Positions 21,772-35,043 of a DNA stretch of 64,000 nucleotides are shown one piece after another. Numbering within the stretch: the stretch's first letter is position 1; each line of letters begins with the position of its first letter. The stretch covers positions 1-64,000 of the forward strand of contig NZ_NQKI01000015.1 in assembly GCF_002269125.1 (NCBI RefSeq), written 5' to 3'. The stretch is from Pseudomonas lundensis (lineage in GTDB: Bacteria; Pseudomonadota; Gammaproteobacteria; Pseudomonadales; Pseudomonadaceae). The notes beneath the pieces are model-generated. The model had not been told where the DNA came from, made no database searches, and was given only the letters and a program-made list of their open reading frames with translations. Both the position numbers and the translations under genes were made by a program.

Positions 21772-21883
21772 CTTACGCCTGCCGGATAGTGAGGACTACG
21801 CATTGCAGGCAAATGGCCATTAGCTTACTATTTGTGTGCTTATAAGGGTTAAGCCTAAGCATATAACAATAATGGAGCGGGCC

Positions 21884-22534
21884 ATGGTGCCACTTAAGCG
21901 AACACTGGCCGGTGGTTTAGTGCTGCTTGCTATCAGCAGCGTTCAGGCCGCGGAGCCTCGCAACATCTTCCTGCAAGGTGGCAGTCAGCCTGGGGCCACA
22001 GCCTGTATGGCGTGTCATGGCATGGATGGCATGGGCGTCGCCCCGGCAGGATTTCCGCGATTGGCAGGTCTTTCTGCCGATTACCTCAGCAAACAGCTGC
22101 GTGACTTTAGAGAGGGCTCGCGGGTAAGTCCCGTGATGCAGCCGTTGGCCAGTGCATTGACGTCGGATGAGATCCGTTCAGTGACCACAGCCTTAGCCGC
22201 CATGCCTGCGCCAACAGCGCCTGCTGTAAGTCGCAGCCAGGTGGTCAAAAGTGTGGGGCAGTCACTGGCCCTTCGCGGCGCCTGGGAGCGCAACATTCCT
22301 GAATGCGTGAGCTGCCATGGGCCTGGCGGTGCAGGGGTTGGCAGCGCCTTTCCGCCACTGGCCAATCAACCCGCCCTTTACCTTGCCGGACAGCTTAATG
22401 CCTGGCGTGAAGGCTTGCGCCGCAACGACCCGAGCGACCTGATGGGGCATATTGCCAAAGCCATGACAGCAGAAGAAGTGAAGGCGGTCGCTGAGTATTT
22501 CGCCACCCTGGCACCTCAGGAGGCTGCGCAATGA
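21884..22534 (+). CDS. tsdB: Dihaem cytochrome c4-like electron acceptor (TsdB type)
   Basis: A 216-aa exported cytochrome with a signal peptide (1-22) and two haem c sites, CMACH (41-45) and CVSCH (141-145), in a duplicated cytochrome-c4 fold. The ATG at 21884 is preceded by GGAG six bases before; the frame is open further upstream without a better site. It overlaps the next gene by four bases. Cytochrome c4 partners of this type are known as TsdB, the electron acceptor of thiosulfate dehydrogenase; that assignment rests on the neighbour. Confidence 0.82.
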   Translation: MVPLKRTLAGGLVLLAISSVQAAEPRNIFLQGGSQPGATACMACHGMDGMGVAPAGFPRLAGLSADYLSKQLRDFREGSRVSPVMQPLASALTSDEIRSVTTALAAMPAPTAPAVSRSQVVKSVGQSLALRGAWERNIPECVSCHGPGGAGVGSAFPPLANQPALYLAGQLNAWREGLRRNDPSDLMGHIAKAMTAEEVKAVAEYFATLAPQEAAQ

Positions 22535-23457
22535 AACGTCTGTTGCCTGTGTATGCGTTTTGTGTGCTGGTTGCACCGATGGCGGGTGCAGCCACCATTG
22601 CCATGGAAGATCAGTCGCAGCTTAAAATCCCGCCTGCGGCAAAGCACCCGAATTCCTATTTTCGTCCGCCGCAGCAAAGCGAACTTCCCGACAATGCCTA
22701 TGGAAAGATGGTCATGGACGGGTACGCACTGTTTGTGGACACCAAACGTCAGGCGCCCCAATTCGTCGGCAATGGCCTCAATTGCACCAATTGCCATCTG
22801 GATCAGGGAAAACTGGCGAACTCCGCGCCGCTGTGGGGGGCTTACCCGATGTACCCTGCGTATCGCAAGAAAAATGACAAGGTCAATACGTTTGCCGAAC
22901 GCCTGCAGGGCTGTTTTCAGTTCAGTATGAATGGCGGCACGCCACCGGCCGCAGACAGTCGTGAAATCACAGCCTTATCGGTGTATGCCTATTGGTTGTC
23001 GACAAAAGCGCCCGTTGGGGTCGAGCTGCCCGGGCGCGGCTATCCGCAGGTGCCTGAACCCGCTGGCGGCTTCGACTTGGTGCGTGGCGCAGCTGTTTAT
23101 CAGGCGCACTGTGCGCTCTGTCATGGCAATGAGGGGCAAGGCCAGAAGGTTGGAACCGATTACGTGATGCCACCTTTGTGGGGTAAAGACTCCTACAACT
23201 GGGGGGCGGGCATGCATCGCATCAATACGGCGGCGTCGTTCATCAAGCACAATATGCCCTTGGGTAAACCCGGCAGTTTGAGCGACGAGCAAGCCTGGGA
23301 TGTGGCGGCGTATGTCAATACGCACGAGCGACCACAAGACCCGCGTTTGGTGGAGGGGTCGATTGAAAAAACACGCGTGAAGTTTCACGCCAATGACGGG
23401 GTCAATGCGTATGGGCAAACCGTTAATGGCGTTTTGATCGGGCAAGGTATCCCGTAA
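22531..23457 (+). CDS. tsdA: Thiosulfate dehydrogenase (tetrathionate-forming), dihaem TsdA type
   Basis: A 308-aa periplasmic dihaem cytochrome with a signal peptide (1-20) and haem sites CTNCH (85-89) and CALCH (194-198). Between them is Cys128 in ERLQGCFQFSMNG, the position of the unusual Cys haem ligand of TsdA, where two thiosulfates are joined to tetrathionate. The block PLWGAYPMYPAYR also fits. It is coupled to tsdB by an ATGA overlap. The alternative is a generic dihaem c-type cytochrome; the Cys ligand and the partner favour TsdA. Biochemical direction (thiosulfate oxidation or tetrathionate reduction) cannot be told. Confidence 0.8.
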   Translation: MKRLLPVYAFCVLVAPMAGAATIAMEDQSQLKIPPAAKHPNSYFRPPQQSELPDNAYGKMVMDGYALFVDTKRQAPQFVGNGLNCTNCHLDQGKLANSAPLWGAYPMYPAYRKKNDKVNTFAERLQGCFQFSMNGGTPPAADSREITALSVYAYWLSTKAPVGVELPGRGYPQVPEPAGGFDLVRGAAVYQAHCALCHGNEGQGQKVGTDYVMPPLWGKDSYNWGAGMHRINTAASFIKHNMPLGKPGSLSDEQAWDVAAYVNTHERPQDPRLVEGSIEKTRVKFHANDGVNAYGQTVNGVLIGQGIP

Positions 23458-27027: not shown

Positions 27028-29067
27028 ATGAAGGCCATGAAACCGATACCGACTCGAGTACGGCGGCAATTTGATGAGCGTGCAGATGCTGTACTGCCAG
27101 GTTTAAGCCCTGATTTTCTGAGTGCCGATGATGCCGCGCGTTATGTCCATGCATTAATCGATCACACGCACGCTAAAGAGTGTGGAGGGCTAATCCTCAA
27201 AGCAGAGGATGGCAAGTATGTGGCGACCTTGCCGTTCTTTACGGAGACCGACGAATACAACCCTTATCGCTTGCTTCCTGTCGATGAGACCGGAAAGCTA
27301 AGTCATCCCCCCGGCTTTATCTGCTATGCCCTTTATCATTCGCATACCAATGACTATGAGCCCAGCCCCGCGAAGAATGACCTGCGTGAAATAGCGGCCC
27401 TTTATACGCGAGACAGTTTTTTTACGCCCAACGATGTGTTTCGCAATACGGATATAGCCACATTCATCAGCGTGCATTATTTGTCAGGCTTGAATGGCTC
27501 GTTAATTAAATATCAGTCCAAAGGGGCTGAGCAGGATGAGGCGCTTGAAGATGTAATGGTCGAGGCCATGTTTAAGGCAACGCTGTTTGAGGTTCTCACC
27601 GAGCAGATCCGGGGCGCCGCTACGCTAGGAAAGTTGTCGGTCATACAGTCCAGTGAGGTGTGGCGCGGAAAGGTCGGCAGGGTTGGCGCGGACTTTGAGG
27701 TGTATACGCCTTCGAGTTATCTGGATCTTGCTCCCAGAATCGTTGAGCATCCGGCATTCGGAGCGGTCAACCCAACCCTCGAAGAGGCCATTAAGGATGC
27801 AAAGTCACGCAGTCACCAATCAAGTGAGCGTCACTATGGGGTAGTTTTGCAACATTTAACGCGGCAAGAATTTATTGCTTCCGAGCCCGTTTTGGGTGAG
27901 GTGGACTTTTCGCTTAGCAGAGTGTTTGGAGCGGGTGCTGAGGGGGGCGTCCAGTTGCCTGACGGCTATGAGGTTCATGGCTTCTACTGCGCCAGTTCTC
28001 TTTATCACTCGCCCAAGCGCTTGCCGCCACGTGATCGCGGGTTGTTTAAACACTTTATTGACCCTGAGTTTTTATTGGCAGGTATCAAGGCGGCATGTTC
28101 GCGCACTGAACGGCCGGTCCCTCTTTATATCAACGCCCGTGAGGGGGCGGTATTAAGGGTTATGCCGGATAACAACAGTGTTAGGCGCCTGTCCGAGTTG
28201 ATTGATGAGTCAGGTGCGGCGTCACCCCGGTATACACGTAATAACGTGTTGGCGGGGACGGTAGCGATGCGCGACTACATTTGCACGGTTGCTGCCACTG
28301 TTCAGCTAAGTGTTATTGATGCCACTGATATGTGGGGCGCAGTTGGACGAGTAGACGCACACTGGCAGCCCTACAAGCACGTCACCGAGCGCCACTGGAG
28401 TCCTGCTTTCAGGGATGCTGACGCTGTTGCCCTGCATGTGCACCAGCACATTAAGCGAGAGAGTGATCGCGTGTTTGGCGGGCTCATCTGTCAGCGCGCA
28501 GATGGTTTATTTACGGCCACCGAGCCTGTCGCGTCGTACAGCGAAACATTCGATCCCATGAGTGTTTATCCTGCTGAATCGCCTGCGCTAATGCCTGAAG
28601 GCTACCGGGTGGTTGCGGTTTACCACAGTCACCGGGTGCAGCCTTTACAGTTATGGCGCTCGGCTGAAGAAGAGCAGTTGTATCGCAACATGCTTGAACC
28701 TCATGAGCTGCGGGCTGCCATTGATGAGCGTCAGTGGGCGCAATACCGATACTTTTTTGGGCACGATGGTGCGCTCATCAAGTACACGCCGAGCGGTTCC
28801 GAGCGTGAAGGTCGGCTGATGGAGAGAATTACGCCCAGGGCGGATCAGCTTGAATGTGTTCGAAAAAATGCACTTCAGATGAAGTTGCGCGCCAATGCGC
28901 TAAAGCCCAGTGAATACATCAGCCTGGTTGCACGATCGGGTTCATTGCAGGTGCTGGTTGGCAGCCCTGCGTGGGGGGAGGTGGGGACGGTGACGTCTAC
29001 CTGGAAGGTCACCGTACCTCGAGCTGATCCGGCTGCGGAAAAGAAGCCGGCCAGTCCGGGTCTTTAA
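27028..29067 (+). CDS. Protein with three DUF4329-like repeats
   Basis: A 679-aa soluble protein without signal or membrane segments. It is built of three repeats of about 200 residues starting near 32, 251 and 463. Each has an (A/E)GG(L/V)I strand, a (A/I)(T/S)EP or LPF strand, a YHSH-type motif (YHSHT at 103-107, YHSHR at 532-536; degenerate YCASS at 320-324), an LIKYxxxG strand and a closing SVIxSxxxW/MWGxVGRV segment. The pattern fits DUF4329, which I recall as related to JAB-type metallopeptidase folds; that relation is from memory. The second repeat lost its HxH. Codon choice looks more AT-rich than in the neighbours. It is probably a single-gene unit with no identified partner; function unknown. 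Confidence 0.75.
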   Translation: MKAMKPIPTRVRRQFDERADAVLPGLSPDFLSADDAARYVHALIDHTHAKECGGLILKAEDGKYVATLPFFTETDEYNPYRLLPVDETGKLSHPPGFICYALYHSHTNDYEPSPAKNDLREIAALYTRDSFFTPNDVFRNTDIATFISVHYLSGLNGSLIKYQSKGAEQDEALEDVMVEAMFKATLFEVLTEQIRGAATLGKLSVIQSSEVWRGKVGRVGADFEVYTPSSYLDLAPRIVEHPAFGAVNPTLEEAIKDAKSRSHQSSERHYGVVLQHLTRQEFIASEPVLGEVDFSLSRVFGAGAEGGVQLPDGYEVHGFYCASSLYHSPKRLPPRDRGLFKHFIDPEFLLAGIKAACSRTERPVPLYINAREGAVLRVMPDNNSVRRLSELIDESGAASPRYTRNNVLAGTVAMRDYICTVAATVQLSVIDATDMWGAVGRVDAHWQPYKHVTERHWSPAFRDADAVALHVHQHIKRESDRVFGGLICQRADGLFTATEPVASYSETFDPMSVYPAESPALMPEGYRVVAVYHSHRVQPLQLWRSAEEEQLYRNMLEPHELRAAIDERQWAQYRYFFGHDGALIKYTPSGSEREGRLMERITPRADQLECVRKNALQMKLRANALKPSEYISLVARSGSLQVLVGSPAWGEVGTVTSTWKVTVPRADPAAEKKPASPGL

Positions 29068-29141: not shown

Positions 29142-30152
29142 TCATTCGCCGGGCGGCGTGACGGGTAAAGGCGCTTCGTGTTCTCTCAGTGCCTTAAAGG
29201 TTTCAAGTGCTGCCTCAGCCTTCATCGCGCGCATGGTGAGGCCTGTGACAGCCTGTTGAGCTTCGGTCTGTACATGCTTAAGCGTTTCGCCCTCATGGAT
29301 TGCCACCCGCAACCGTTCTTGGAGCAAGGTGCGCTCCCCCTCCAACTGGCTCACCTGATTGCTCAAGTGTTGGTTGTGTTGCGCCAGCTTTTTCTGCTGC
29401 TCATTGACCTGATGGATTTCCTTGGCCAGCGCACGGTTTTCACTGAGCACCCGTTCGTTATCGCGGTGCAGTTGTGTGATTTCATCCTGCCGCACAAGGG
29501 CGCTTTGCTGCGCCTGTCGCAGCTCCATCTGCACCTGTTGCAACTGACCCTCATGGCGCCGCTGATCTTGCTCGCGCTGCTCTTTGGCAGCGCTGCGGTA
29601 ATGCTCCAGCGCATCGCGCGCATGGAGGTGTTTTTCTTCCAGCGAACGTATTTGCTCGTCACGGTCTTTGAGGCGCAGTTCAAAATCGCTGCACGCCTGA
29701 TTTAGAGCCGCATTACGCGTCTGCTCGGTCTGCAGCATGGAGCGCGTGGACTCGAGGTGAGCGGTTTCCTGGTTCAAAGCTGTCGCCTGAATATCCAGCT
29801 CCTGTTTCAGCGCAGACAGCGTCAGTTGAGCTTCAGACAATTGGGTCTGCAGCTGCGTTTTCAGCTGTTCGTAATGTGCCTGGGCGCGATCAATCGGTTC
29901 TTGTGCTTGCTCTTGCAGCCGATGGGCGAGGCGGGAGACCAAGTCTGCCAGCTCATCGCCAAGCGCTTCATGGGAAACACCTCGACGGCTGTCACTGTCG
30001 TCCAGCTCCTTCAAATATCGGTGAATAGTGGTTTTTGAGCCGGTATTCCCCATCTCGATCCGCACCGCATCAATGCTTGGGTGTTCACCACGGGCCAGGA
30101 TTGCCGCGCGTGCAATTTGCACCACTGCTTTGTTTACGCCGCCGCGAGCCAT
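29142..30152 (-). CDS. KfrA-like DNA-binding coiled-coil protein
   Basis: A 336-aa protein with an N-terminal DNA-binding domain (about 1-60: NKAVVQIARAAILARGEHPSIDAVRIEMG, TTIHRYLKEL) as in the KfrA N-terminal family. It is followed by an extended heptad-rich coiled coil (about 85-310) dominated by Q, E, L and R. KfrA proteins are alpha-helical transcriptional autorepressors on IncP plasmids, where they also help partition or DNA organisation. Here the gene is chromosomal and divergent from a tyrosine recombinase, with palindromes in the shared 179-bp gap that are good operator candidates. A dedicated segregation role is inference. Confidence 0.82.
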   Translation of the reverse strand: MARGGVNKAVVQIARAAILARGEHPSIDAVRIEMGNTGSKTTIHRYLKELDDSDSRRGVSHEALGDELADLVSRLAHRLQEQAQEPIDRAQAHYEQLKTQLQTQLSEAQLTLSALKQELDIQATALNQETAHLESTRSMLQTEQTRNAALNQACSDFELRLKDRDEQIRSLEEKHLHARDALEHYRSAAKEQREQDQRRHEGQLQQVQMELRQAQQSALVRQDEITQLHRDNERVLSENRALAKEIHQVNEQQKKLAQHNQHLSNQVSQLEGERTLLQERLRVAIHEGETLKHVQTEAQQAVTGLTMRAMKAEAALETFKALREHEAPLPVTPPGE

Positions 30153-30179
30153 GGGTATCTCCTACGATTATGTACTGTG

Positions 30180-30202
30180 GTATGTATCATGTAATTACAT
30201 AC
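30180..30202. promoter_or_regulatory. Palindromic operator or recombination-site candidate between kfrA-like gene and recombinase gene
   Basis: GTATGTA, nine bases, TACATAC. It overlaps the perfect 12-bp palindrome ATGTAATTACAT (30189-30200), and another TATGTA lies at 30169-30174. It is 28 bp upstream of the kfrA-like start. It could be a KfrA-type autoregulatory site or the core of a recombinase site. Confidence 0.5.
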
Positions 30203-30331
30203 TATATTGAATTGAATCTTCTGTCATATTTTATGAATTATCAGGCGGGATATACTGGTATTATCCCGCGTCAACGGCTGTTTTGTGATTTTCAGGCCTG
30301 TTTCCAGTACGCAAATGTGAGAGATGCCCCA

Positions 30332-31270
30332 ATGAGCGATCTTGATCGCTATCTGAACGCGGCTACCCGCGATAACACCCGACGCAGTTACCGCGCCGCC
30401 ATTGAGCACTTTGAAGTGACATGGGGCGGTTTTTTGCCTGCCACCAGTGACAGCGTGATCCGTTACTTGGTGGCGCACGCAGGCCAGCTCTCGATCAACA
30501 CCTTGAAATTGCGTCTGTCGGCCATAGCTCAATGGCACAACAGCCAAGGCTTTGCCGACCCCACAAAGGCGCCGGTGGTGCGCAAAGTGTTCAAAGGCAT
30601 CCGTGCGTTACACCCGGCGCAAGAAAAGCAGGCAGAACCGTTGCAATTGCAGCATCTGGAGAAAGTGATTGATTGGCTCGAAAGTGAGGCCCAAGCGGCT
30701 CAAGCCAATGCCGATAAGCCAGGATGGCTGCGTGCGCGTCGCGACACGGCGCTGATTCTGCTGGGGTTTTGGCGGGGCTTTCGCAGTGACGAGCTTTGCC
30801 GTTTGCAGATTGAGCACGTGCAAGCACTCGCAGGTTCGGGCATCACCCTGTATCTGCCGCGCAGTAAAGGTGACCGAGACAACCTCGGTAAAACCTTCCA
30901 GACCCCGGCATTGCTTCGCCTGTGCCCGGTGCGCGCTTACATCGAGTGGCTCAATGCTTCAGCGCTGGTCCGCGGCCCGGTATTCAGAGGGATCGATCGC
31001 TGGGGCAATCTGGGTGAGGAGGGCTTGCACGCCAACAGTGTTATTCCCTTGTTGCGTCAAGCGCTGGAGCGAGCTGGCATTCCCGCCGAACAGTACACAA
31101 GCCATTCGTTGCGACGTGGTTTTGCAACATGGGCGCATCAAAGTGGCTGGGACCTTAAGTCCCTGATGAATTACGTCGGCTGGAAGGACGTTAAGTCAGC
31201 GATGCGCTATGTTGAAGCGTCCCCGTTTACCGGGATGAGCATTGCGGCAGAAAAACGTATCGGGCCTTGA
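30332..31270 (+). CDS. Tyrosine-family site-specific recombinase
   Basis: A 312-aa integrase starting at the ATG at 30332 (MSDLDRYLNAATRDNTRRSY) behind GAGAG; the longer frame covers the promoter region and is rejected. The N-terminal SAM-like core-binding domain (1-90) precedes the catalytic domain with Arg151 (FRSDEL), Lys179 (SKGD), His258-x-x-Arg261 (HSLRRGF), Trp284 and nucleophile Tyr293 (MRYVE). All catalytic positions are present, so it should be active. Its substrate is unknown. No att repeats or cargo boundaries were found, so it may be a resolvase-like partner of the KfrA-type protein or a relic of an integrated element. Confidence 0.88.
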   Translation: MSDLDRYLNAATRDNTRRSYRAAIEHFEVTWGGFLPATSDSVIRYLVAHAGQLSINTLKLRLSAIAQWHNSQGFADPTKAPVVRKVFKGIRALHPAQEKQAEPLQLQHLEKVIDWLESEAQAAQANADKPGWLRARRDTALILLGFWRGFRSDELCRLQIEHVQALAGSGITLYLPRSKGDRDNLGKTFQTPALLRLCPVRAYIEWLNASALVRGPVFRGIDRWGNLGEEGLHANSVIPLLRQALERAGIPAEQYTSHSLRRGFATWAHQSGWDLKSLMNYVGWKDVKSAMRYVEASPFTGMSIAAEKRIGP

Positions 31271-34677: not shown

Positions 34678-35043
34678 TCAGCTGCGAACCCAACGCTCGA
34701 CGGTTGATGCGCCGTACTTTTCCTTCCACGCTTTAAGCCCGCGATGGTTACCGCCTTTGGTTTCAATAAGTTCACCGGTATGTGGGTTGTGATAAACCTT
34801 CACAACACGGGCTTTGCGCTGTTTAGGGGCTGCTGAAGGCTTGGATGTCACGGGGTGAGGATCAAGAATCGCGATGATGTCACGCAGATTCTTATTGTAA
34901 GATTTCATCAACCCTTGAAGTTTTTGTTCGAATTCAATCTCCTTTTTTAATCCGGCATCATTTTTCAAGGCTTCCAACTGCGCCATTTGTTCTTGTAGCG
35001 CCTTTTCAGCGGCGCGAAACTCGGCAAGTCTGCTCAAAGTCAT
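34678..35043 (-). CDS. MvaT/MvaU-family H-NS-like nucleoid protein
   Basis: A 121-aa xenogeneic silencer of the Pseudomonas MvaT/MvaU family. An N-terminal coiled coil (about 1-60, LAEFRAAEKALQEQMAQLEALKND) makes oligomers, a flexible basic linker follows, and the C-terminal DNA-binding part contains YHNPHTGELIETKGGNHRGLKAW with the AT-hook-like loop. The N-terminal wording is closer to what I remember of MvaU than MvaT, so the paralogue is left open. It is a single gene with its own terminator. Confidence 0.92.
   Translation of the reverse strand: MTLSRLAEFRAAEKALQEQMAQLEALKNDAGLKKEIEFEQKLQGLMKSYNKNLRDIIAILDPHPVTSKPSAAPKQRKARVVKVYHNPHTGELIETKGGNHRGLKAWKEKYGASTVERWVRS

What the first reader, a model, noticed from the sequence alone, without database searches (positions are those of the whole stretch)
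27028..29067. One protein made of three DUF4329-like modules, with the middle one degenerate
Seen: three repeats of about 200 residues share GG-L-I, YHSH, LIKYxxxG and a closing WGxVGRV strand. The HxH motif is intact in repeats 1 and 3 (103-107, 532-536) and replaced by YCASS in repeat 2. Inference: a scaffold or metallopeptidase-like protein with two active and one structural module; standalone rather than attached to a toxin.
Basis: partly seen in the sequence, partly recalled or inferred. Interest (0 to 1): 0.6.

Follow-up and report, generated by a model that had tools for sequence, protein, structure and literature searches.

The report
Three-module JAMM-fold protein of Pseudomonas
The gene encodes a protein built from three copies of what looks like one metalloenzyme fold, of which only the first keeps a complete active-site set; it is a short member of a Pseudomonas family of long chains of such copies.

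Summary
ORF 27028-29067(+) encodes 679 aa in three homologous modules. Pfam DUF4329 (Tox-JAB-2, JAMM superfamily) hits modules 1 and 3. AlphaFold2 (pLDDT 89, pTM 0.89) gives all three one fold, each aligning with JAMM/MPN chains. HxH is in modules 1 and 3; YCASS lies at that place in module 2.

"Two active modules" is not supported: module 1 has E51, H104, H106, T133, D136; module 3 keeps HxH but has V for the Glu and Glu for Ser and Asp.

It is a short member of a widespread family (114 of 398 sampled genomes of its genus): uninterrupted chains of 2-12 modules, most fetched ones beside urea-transporter genes. In 61 contiguous arrays the full motif is in module 1 in 39, module 2 in 0, module 3 in 5 of 53; 22 arrays have none. 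Module positions without the motif are under purifying selection too. T6SS does not track the family.

Best reading: a cytoplasmic, single-headed JAMM-fold metallohydrolase with pseudo-enzyme modules as scaffold; metal, catalysis and substrate are inference. The gor-kfrA copy is a narrow-clade insertion, a remnant in P. lundensis. New variant of a known kind.

The parts
27028..29067 (+). whole gene, 679 aa, three tandem DUF4329/JAMM-fold modules (A-B-A)
27073..27729 (+). module 1 (residues 16-234), A-type, full JAMM-like residue set
27178..27180 (+). E51, expected JAMM catalytic Glu of module 1
27337..27345 (+). H104-S-H106, expected metal ligands of module 1
27424..27435 (+). T133-P-N-D136, the S/T-x-x-D of module 1, at the start of the next helix
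27730..28398 (+). module 2 (residues 235-457), B-type, no HxH; same predicted fold (MPN-like)
27985..27999 (+). YCASS (320-324) at the HxH columns of module 2
28378..29058 (+). module 3 (residues 451-677), A-type with HxH but incomplete set
28471..28473 (+). V482 at the catalytic Glu column of module 3
28624..28632 (+). H533-S-H535 of module 3
28696..28707 (+). E557-P-H-E560 where S-x-x-D is expected in module 3

Best explanation
It is a cytoplasmic, single-headed JAMM-fold metallohydrolase. Module 1 holds the only complete site (Glu, His-x-His, Ser/Thr-x-x-Asp) and would bind one zinc-like metal and hydrolyse its substrate (a peptide or isopeptide bond, or nucleic acid, as proposed for Tox-JAB-2). 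Modules 2 and 3 are the same fold without a full site and act as scaffold or substrate-binding parts packed against module 1, much as MPN- partners do beside MPN+ enzymes. Shown: the modules, the shared predicted fold, the residue sets, the family pattern, and constraint on the same module positions in related arrays. Inferred: metal, catalysis, substrate, cytoplasmic place (no signal peptide seen by eye), packing role.
For: Full motif at module 1 and not at 2 or 3. Family pattern in 61 contiguous arrays: full E+HxH+D at position 1 in 39 of 61, position 2 in 0 of 61, position 3 in 5 of 53, position 4 in 3 of 51, position 5 in 0 of 51, position 6 in 2 of 40, positions 7-12 in 0 of 73. Fold: full model pLDDT 89.0, pTM 0.89; M1 alone pLDDT 90.4. 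M1 alone aligns with PfJAMM1 5ld9_B (Z 7.5, rmsd 3.3, 112 residues), and the 50 rows shown are JAMM/MPN/RadC entries by title or recall, save 2kks, whose title names no family; lower rows were not shown. In the full model M2 aligns with EMC and Rpn chains (8eoi_H Z 8.1), M3 with Sst2/AMSH (7lm3_A Z 8.5). Constraint in 15 pairs of related arrays: median dN/dS by position 0.15-0.22, and 0.36 at position 9, which has one pair; position 2, where none of 61 arrays has HxH, has 0.20. Window against the P. lundensis remnant: dN/dS 0.14/0.87 and 0.18/1.18 on two pieces. High pTM for a three-domain chain suggests rigid packing (inference).
Against: 22 of 61 arrays have no module with the full set, including all seven arrays at the cco locus. 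Among the seven five-module relatives nearest the window protein, four keep the full set in module 1 and three do not (L060, L062, L063), so a working site is not always kept even close by. Z 7-8.5 is in the range the tool calls common for models without clear matches, and no PDB Foldseek hit passes 1e-3. Between HxH and S/TxxD there are 26 residues in M1, against 12 in the two single-domain DUF4329 proteins compared and 7 in classical JAMM (recalled). Several array pairs share a member and many dS values are near or above 1, so dN/dS is rough. No metal, substrate or partner was shown. The copy at this locus is a remnant in P. lundensis, so it is dispensable there.
Confidence: 0.45

Rival explanations
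1. Two active modules (1 and 3) and one structural module.
For: HxH is present in both M1 and M3; DUF4329 scores above cut-off in both.
Against: M3 has V482 for Glu and E557/E560 for Ser/Asp. The third modules of L032, L058 and L061, which also keep HxH, read DRIFGG or DKVYGG and EPHE at the same places, so this looks inherited, not a slip.
Confidence: 0.12
2. A wholly non-catalytic scaffold: all modules are pseudo-enzymes and the residual motif of module 1 is structural.
For: 22 of 61 arrays lack any full module, and three of the seven nearest five-module relatives lack it in module 1; other positions are nearly as constrained as module 1 (medians 0.17-0.22 against 0.15).
Against: The full set is kept at position 1 in 39 of 61 arrays, and module 1 has the lowest median dN/dS.
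Confidence: 0.25
3. A secreted or injected toxin/effector: DUF4329 is Tox-JAB-2, a C-terminal toxin domain of RHS/PAAR proteins.
For: Tox-JAB-2 assignment and toxin contexts (passages of PMC3482391 and PMC10469887); three of the seven cco-locus arrays were scanned and carry Ig-like Big_2 domains.
Against: No RHS, PAAR or other delivery domain here. No room for a usual immunity gene: gaps of 159 nt to gor and 74 nt to the convergent kfrA. The window genome (draft, 111 contigs) has no T6SS VipA match and no T3SS secretin over cut-off, only three sub-threshold secretin matches; that search had no positive control over cut-off. T6SS does not track the family: VipA in 37 of 40 array-bearing and 36 of 40 array-free genomes. 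41 of 58 fetched loci share one chromosomal address.
Confidence: 0.13
4. A truncated duplicate on its way out: the urt-locus paralogue (five modules) is the working gene and the window copy is a relic.
For: The window modules fall with modules 1, 2 and 3 of five-module relatives and the last two have no counterpart; the P. lundensis copy is reduced to pieces of residues 18-46, 520-613 and 613-677.
Against: The window ORF is intact, and dN/dS against the remnant is about 0.15-0.16, so constraint acted for most of the divergence.
Confidence: 0.1

Closest known systems
DUF4329 / Tox-JAB-2 (PF14220)
   Same: Pfam hit above cut-off; E, H[ST]H, S/T, D set in module 1
   Different: three (elsewhere up to 12) modules in tandem, most without the set; no RHS/PAAR; longer insert between HxH and S/TxxD
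JAMM/MPN metalloproteases and MPN- partners (PfJAMM1, Sst2/AMSH, Rpn11-Rpn8, EMC8/9; subunit names of complex chains recalled)
   Same: predicted fold; mix of modules with and without catalytic residues
   Different: no meaningful sequence match to solved structures; modules covalently joined in one chain; ubiquitin-like partners were not searched for, and none of the eight window genes scanned is one
Prok-JAB (PF14464)
   Same: weak hit, 20.9 bits on the whole protein
   Different: below its cut-off of 25 bits

Membership tests
DUF4329 / Tox-JAB-2 domain family | Pfam PF14220 score over the gathering cut-off | tested here: met
   whole protein 58.6 bits, M1 33.3, M3 30.5, cut-off 28.6; M2 alone no hit
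DUF4329 / Tox-JAB-2 domain family | E, H[ST]H, S, D set (table passage of PMC3482391) | tested here: met
   met in module 1 with T for S; not met in modules 2 and 3
JAMM/MPN superfamily | JAMM/MPN fold | tested here: inconclusive
   all three modules align with JAMM/MPN chains, Z 7.3-8.5, but no PDB Foldseek hit under 1e-3
JAMM metalloprotease (active) | metal-site geometry and metal-dependent hydrolysis | not testable with these tools
   no coordinates returned; needs a structure or an assay
Polymorphic toxin / RHS-PAAR effector | RHS, PAAR or other delivery domain on the same protein | tested here: not met
   Pfam finds only DUF4329 and sub-threshold Prok-JAB
Polymorphic toxin / RHS-PAAR effector | adjacent immunity gene | tested here: not met
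   neighbours are gor (159 nt upstream) and a convergent KfrA_N gene (74 nt downstream)
Known anti-phage defence proteins | PADLOC model match | tested here: not met
   0 families at E up to 1 for the window protein and two relatives

The most novel reading that the evidence does not exclude
A genus-restricted class of giant single-headed metalloenzymes: an N-terminal JAMM-like catalytic module followed by a chain of pseudo-JAMM modules in two largely alternating types plus a special end module, grown and shrunk by whole modules at one chromosomal address. It would be a covalent bacterial counterpart of the MPN+/MPN- pairing known from eukaryotic complexes.
Probability: 0.33. Interest if true: 0.65.

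Novelty: new variant of a known kind. Interest (0 to 1): 0.5.

Why it matters
DUF4329 is annotated as a domain of unknown function or as a toxin tip. Here it is the repeating unit of long proteins found in 114 of 398 sampled genomes of one genus, often with one catalytic-looking head and constrained pseudo-enzyme modules. That asks a testable question: why keep up to eleven dead copies of an enzyme fold behind one live one?

Tried and rejected
Module 2's YHSP (326-329) as a half-kept HxH: rejected, because it lies in an insert (YHDP, YHAP, YRDP, YRNP in the nearest relatives) while YCASS lies at the HxH columns. A serine or aspartate soon after HxH as the S/TxxD of module 1: rejected in favour of T133/D136, which aligns with the FFSxxD of the relatives. 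Defence: PADLOC 0 families for 3 proteins. Phage or plasmid origin: no tblastn match in phages or plasmids; PHROGs none for the window protein and the two-module relative, two weak ones for the paralogue. T6SS link: none. Sequence search of solved structures: two ribosomal L19 rows at E 1.3 for the protein, none for the A2 profile. Promoter/terminator scan: one site each, not above shuffles, neither in the upstream gap. Viral structure library: four hits under 1e-3, to proteins without a JAB name; JAB-named ones follow at weaker E-values; not used. Paper searches for such arrays. DUF4329 is in 5 held papers; I read passages of three and saw the other two as listings only; no passage seen describes arrays.

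Rows dropped before counts: 15 of 76 hit ORFs left out of the 61 arrays (fragments, gapped or with short modules); L031 and L064 are the same P. lundensis place seen twice and both are among the 15. A1 holds 62 of 63 listed module-1-to-3 stretches, 18 of 19 printed (of 38) module-3-to-5 stretches and the window protein. A2 holds 64 of 74 listed A-type modules plus two of the window; the ten left out were HxH-less first modules or a fragment, so '64 of 66 match DUF4329' is biased upward. A3 holds 23 of 51 second modules plus the window's; 1 of 24 matches DUF4329. The 58 fetched loci were picked from the better matches, not at random. The T6SS test used 40 of 114 array-bearing genomes and 40 without a match.

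Full report
Observation. The ORF 27028-29067(+) is intact and encodes 679 aa. It consists of three homologous modules (HMM envelopes 16-234, 235-457, 451-677). Pairwise: M1/M3 61 of 199 identical, 7e-16; M2/M3 53 of 194, 1.8e-6; M1/M2 39 of 184, not found directly by blastp. Pfam gives DUF4329 58.6 bits for the whole protein, M1 and M3 above cut-off on their own, M2 nothing, and Prok-JAB below its cut-off. NCBIfam gives nothing.

What the domain is. A 2012 survey of polymorphic toxins (PMC3482391, passages read) says in its table that Tox-JAB-2 is DUF4329 and in its text that the two partly overlap; it gives the set E, H[ST]H, S, D and suggests nuclease rather than peptidase action. Other papers (PMC10469887, PMC7216683, passages) meet the domain at the tip of Rhs proteins and class it as an RNase; PMC9635880 names it once in a list of T6SS effector nuclease domains (one passage).

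Structure. AlphaFold2 on 81 aligned rows gave pLDDT 89.0 and pTM 0.89, with the same order of main elements in the three modules. In the second-look alignment M1 matches PfJAMM1 (5ld9_B Z 7.3), M2 EMC and Rpn chains (8eoi_H Z 8.1), M3 Sst2/AMSH (7lm3_A Z 8.5). M1 alone (66 rows, pLDDT 90.4) again lists JAMM/MPN/RadC entries, best Z 7.5; 2kks has a title without a family, and only 50 entries are shown. Which chain of a complex is which subunit is recalled. Foldseek against PDB gives nothing under 1e-3, and Z 7-8 is common by the tool's own note, so the fold claim rests on the agreement of list, Pfam and motif.

Active site. Aligning HxH-bearing modules of arrays with two single-domain DUF4329 proteins puts the S/TxxD motif at FFSxxD, at the start of the helix after an inserted helix. 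In the window M1 has E51, H104, H106, T133, D136; M3 has V482, H533, H535, E557, E560; M2 has R, C, S, D, F in those columns. So one module of three is complete.

The family. With the whole protein 18 of 95 genomes match, the window's own included, all in one genus; with module 3, 114 of 398 genomes of the genus, own included. An HMM over 58 fetched neighbourhoods, the named P. lundensis locus L031 and the window protein finds 439 module hits in 76 ORFs. 61 contiguous arrays hold 390 modules: 7 modules in 21 arrays, 5 in 11, 9 in 9, 2 in 8, 6 in 5, 3, 10 and 12 in 2 each, 11 in 1. The window protein is one of two with three modules; the other is a piece of a split gene (L037). A tree of the 390 modules groups odd, even and last positions far better than shuffled labels (37 changes against a mean of 162; the last-module type needs 3; FastTree, with many long branches), so the alternation is strong but not strict. 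The full set sits at position 1 in 39 of 61 arrays and is rare or absent later; 22 arrays have none, 31 one, 6 two, 2 three. The 22 include all seven cco-locus arrays, and of the seven nearest five-module relatives four keep the set in module 1 and three do not.

Constraint. In 15 pairs of arrays, some sharing a member, median dN/dS by module position is 0.15 for module 1 and 0.17-0.22 for the others; position 9 has one pair at 0.36. Position 2, without HxH in any of 61 arrays, has 0.20. The HxH-less modules are therefore kept, not decaying; dS is often near or above 1, so the values are rough.

Distribution and place. In the family sample 5 of 198 genomes match, own included, all in the window's genus. 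In the class sample the A-type profile gives 5 of 369, of which four are weak short hits outside the genus, and the B-type profile only the window's genome. PF14220 itself rings in 4 of 200 genomes of the phylum; the other three have hits in separate open frames of 180-223 aa. Of 58 fetched loci, 41 lie beside urea-transporter or urease genes, 40 of these also with an iron-uptake or PepSY-type gene (28 if the PepSY gene is not counted); 7 lie at ccoN, 6 at a tail-specific protease/EAL pair, 3 elsewhere, and 1 is the P. lundensis gor remnant.

The window copy. gor and kfrA lie side by side, without room for a gene, in 14 of 29 other fetched kfrA loci (L099-L112); the other 15 show no gor in the fetched flank. 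In the window 2.3 kb with this gene lie between them, and in P. lundensis DSM 6252 the same place holds only pieces (residues 18-46, 520-613, 613-677). The copy is thus best read as a narrow-clade insertion. Its GC is 0.539 against 0.567 for the window, within the range of its neighbours (galU 0.533). dN/dS against the remnant is 0.14/0.87 and 0.18/1.18.

Not a delivered toxin here, on present evidence. No RHS/PAAR domain, no room for an immunity gene, no signal peptide seen by eye in the window protein or the array starts, no VipA in the genome, no T3SS secretin over cut-off though three sub-threshold secretins (no positive control over cut-off), no association of T6SS with arrays (37 of 40 against 36 of 40).

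Verdict. The better description is a single complete JAMM-like site followed by two pseudo-enzyme modules, a short form of a genus-wide family of module chains. Catalysis, metal and substrate remain inference.

Noticed in passing
L032:8041-11547 (own genome, contig C24) and 40 further loci: Module arrays keep one address beside urea-transporter genes across the genus while module number varies (5 to 12 in contiguous ones); some genomes carry two or three arrays side by side (L042, L080, L088, L091, L093, L096).
   Followed up: partly
L033, L034, L035, L067, L068, L074, L097: At the ccoN locus arrays have 6-7 modules, none complete, and a further roughly 890-1320 aa; Big_2 Ig-like domains were found in all three of the seven that were scanned. 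Upstream genes of L034 have no Pfam hit at 1e-4.
   Followed up: partly
L031:2781-3357: P. lundensis DSM 6252 holds a remnant of the window gene between gor and kfrA; the held genome G423, whose contig C31 shows the same remnant, has an uninterrupted five-module array at the urt locus (L061).
   Followed up: yes
L037, L041, L094: Arrays that fall into two or three ORFs at the urt locus, apparently broken genes.
   Followed up: no
window 29142-31270: A KfrA_N gene and a divergent phage-integrase-family gene; both lie next to gor in the 14 loci L099-L112.
   Followed up: partly
window 21836-23457: Two adjacent c-type cytochrome genes, the second with a SoxA/TsdA domain.
   Followed up: no
window 34678-35043 (-): MvaT-type xenogeneic silencer gene.
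   Followed up: no
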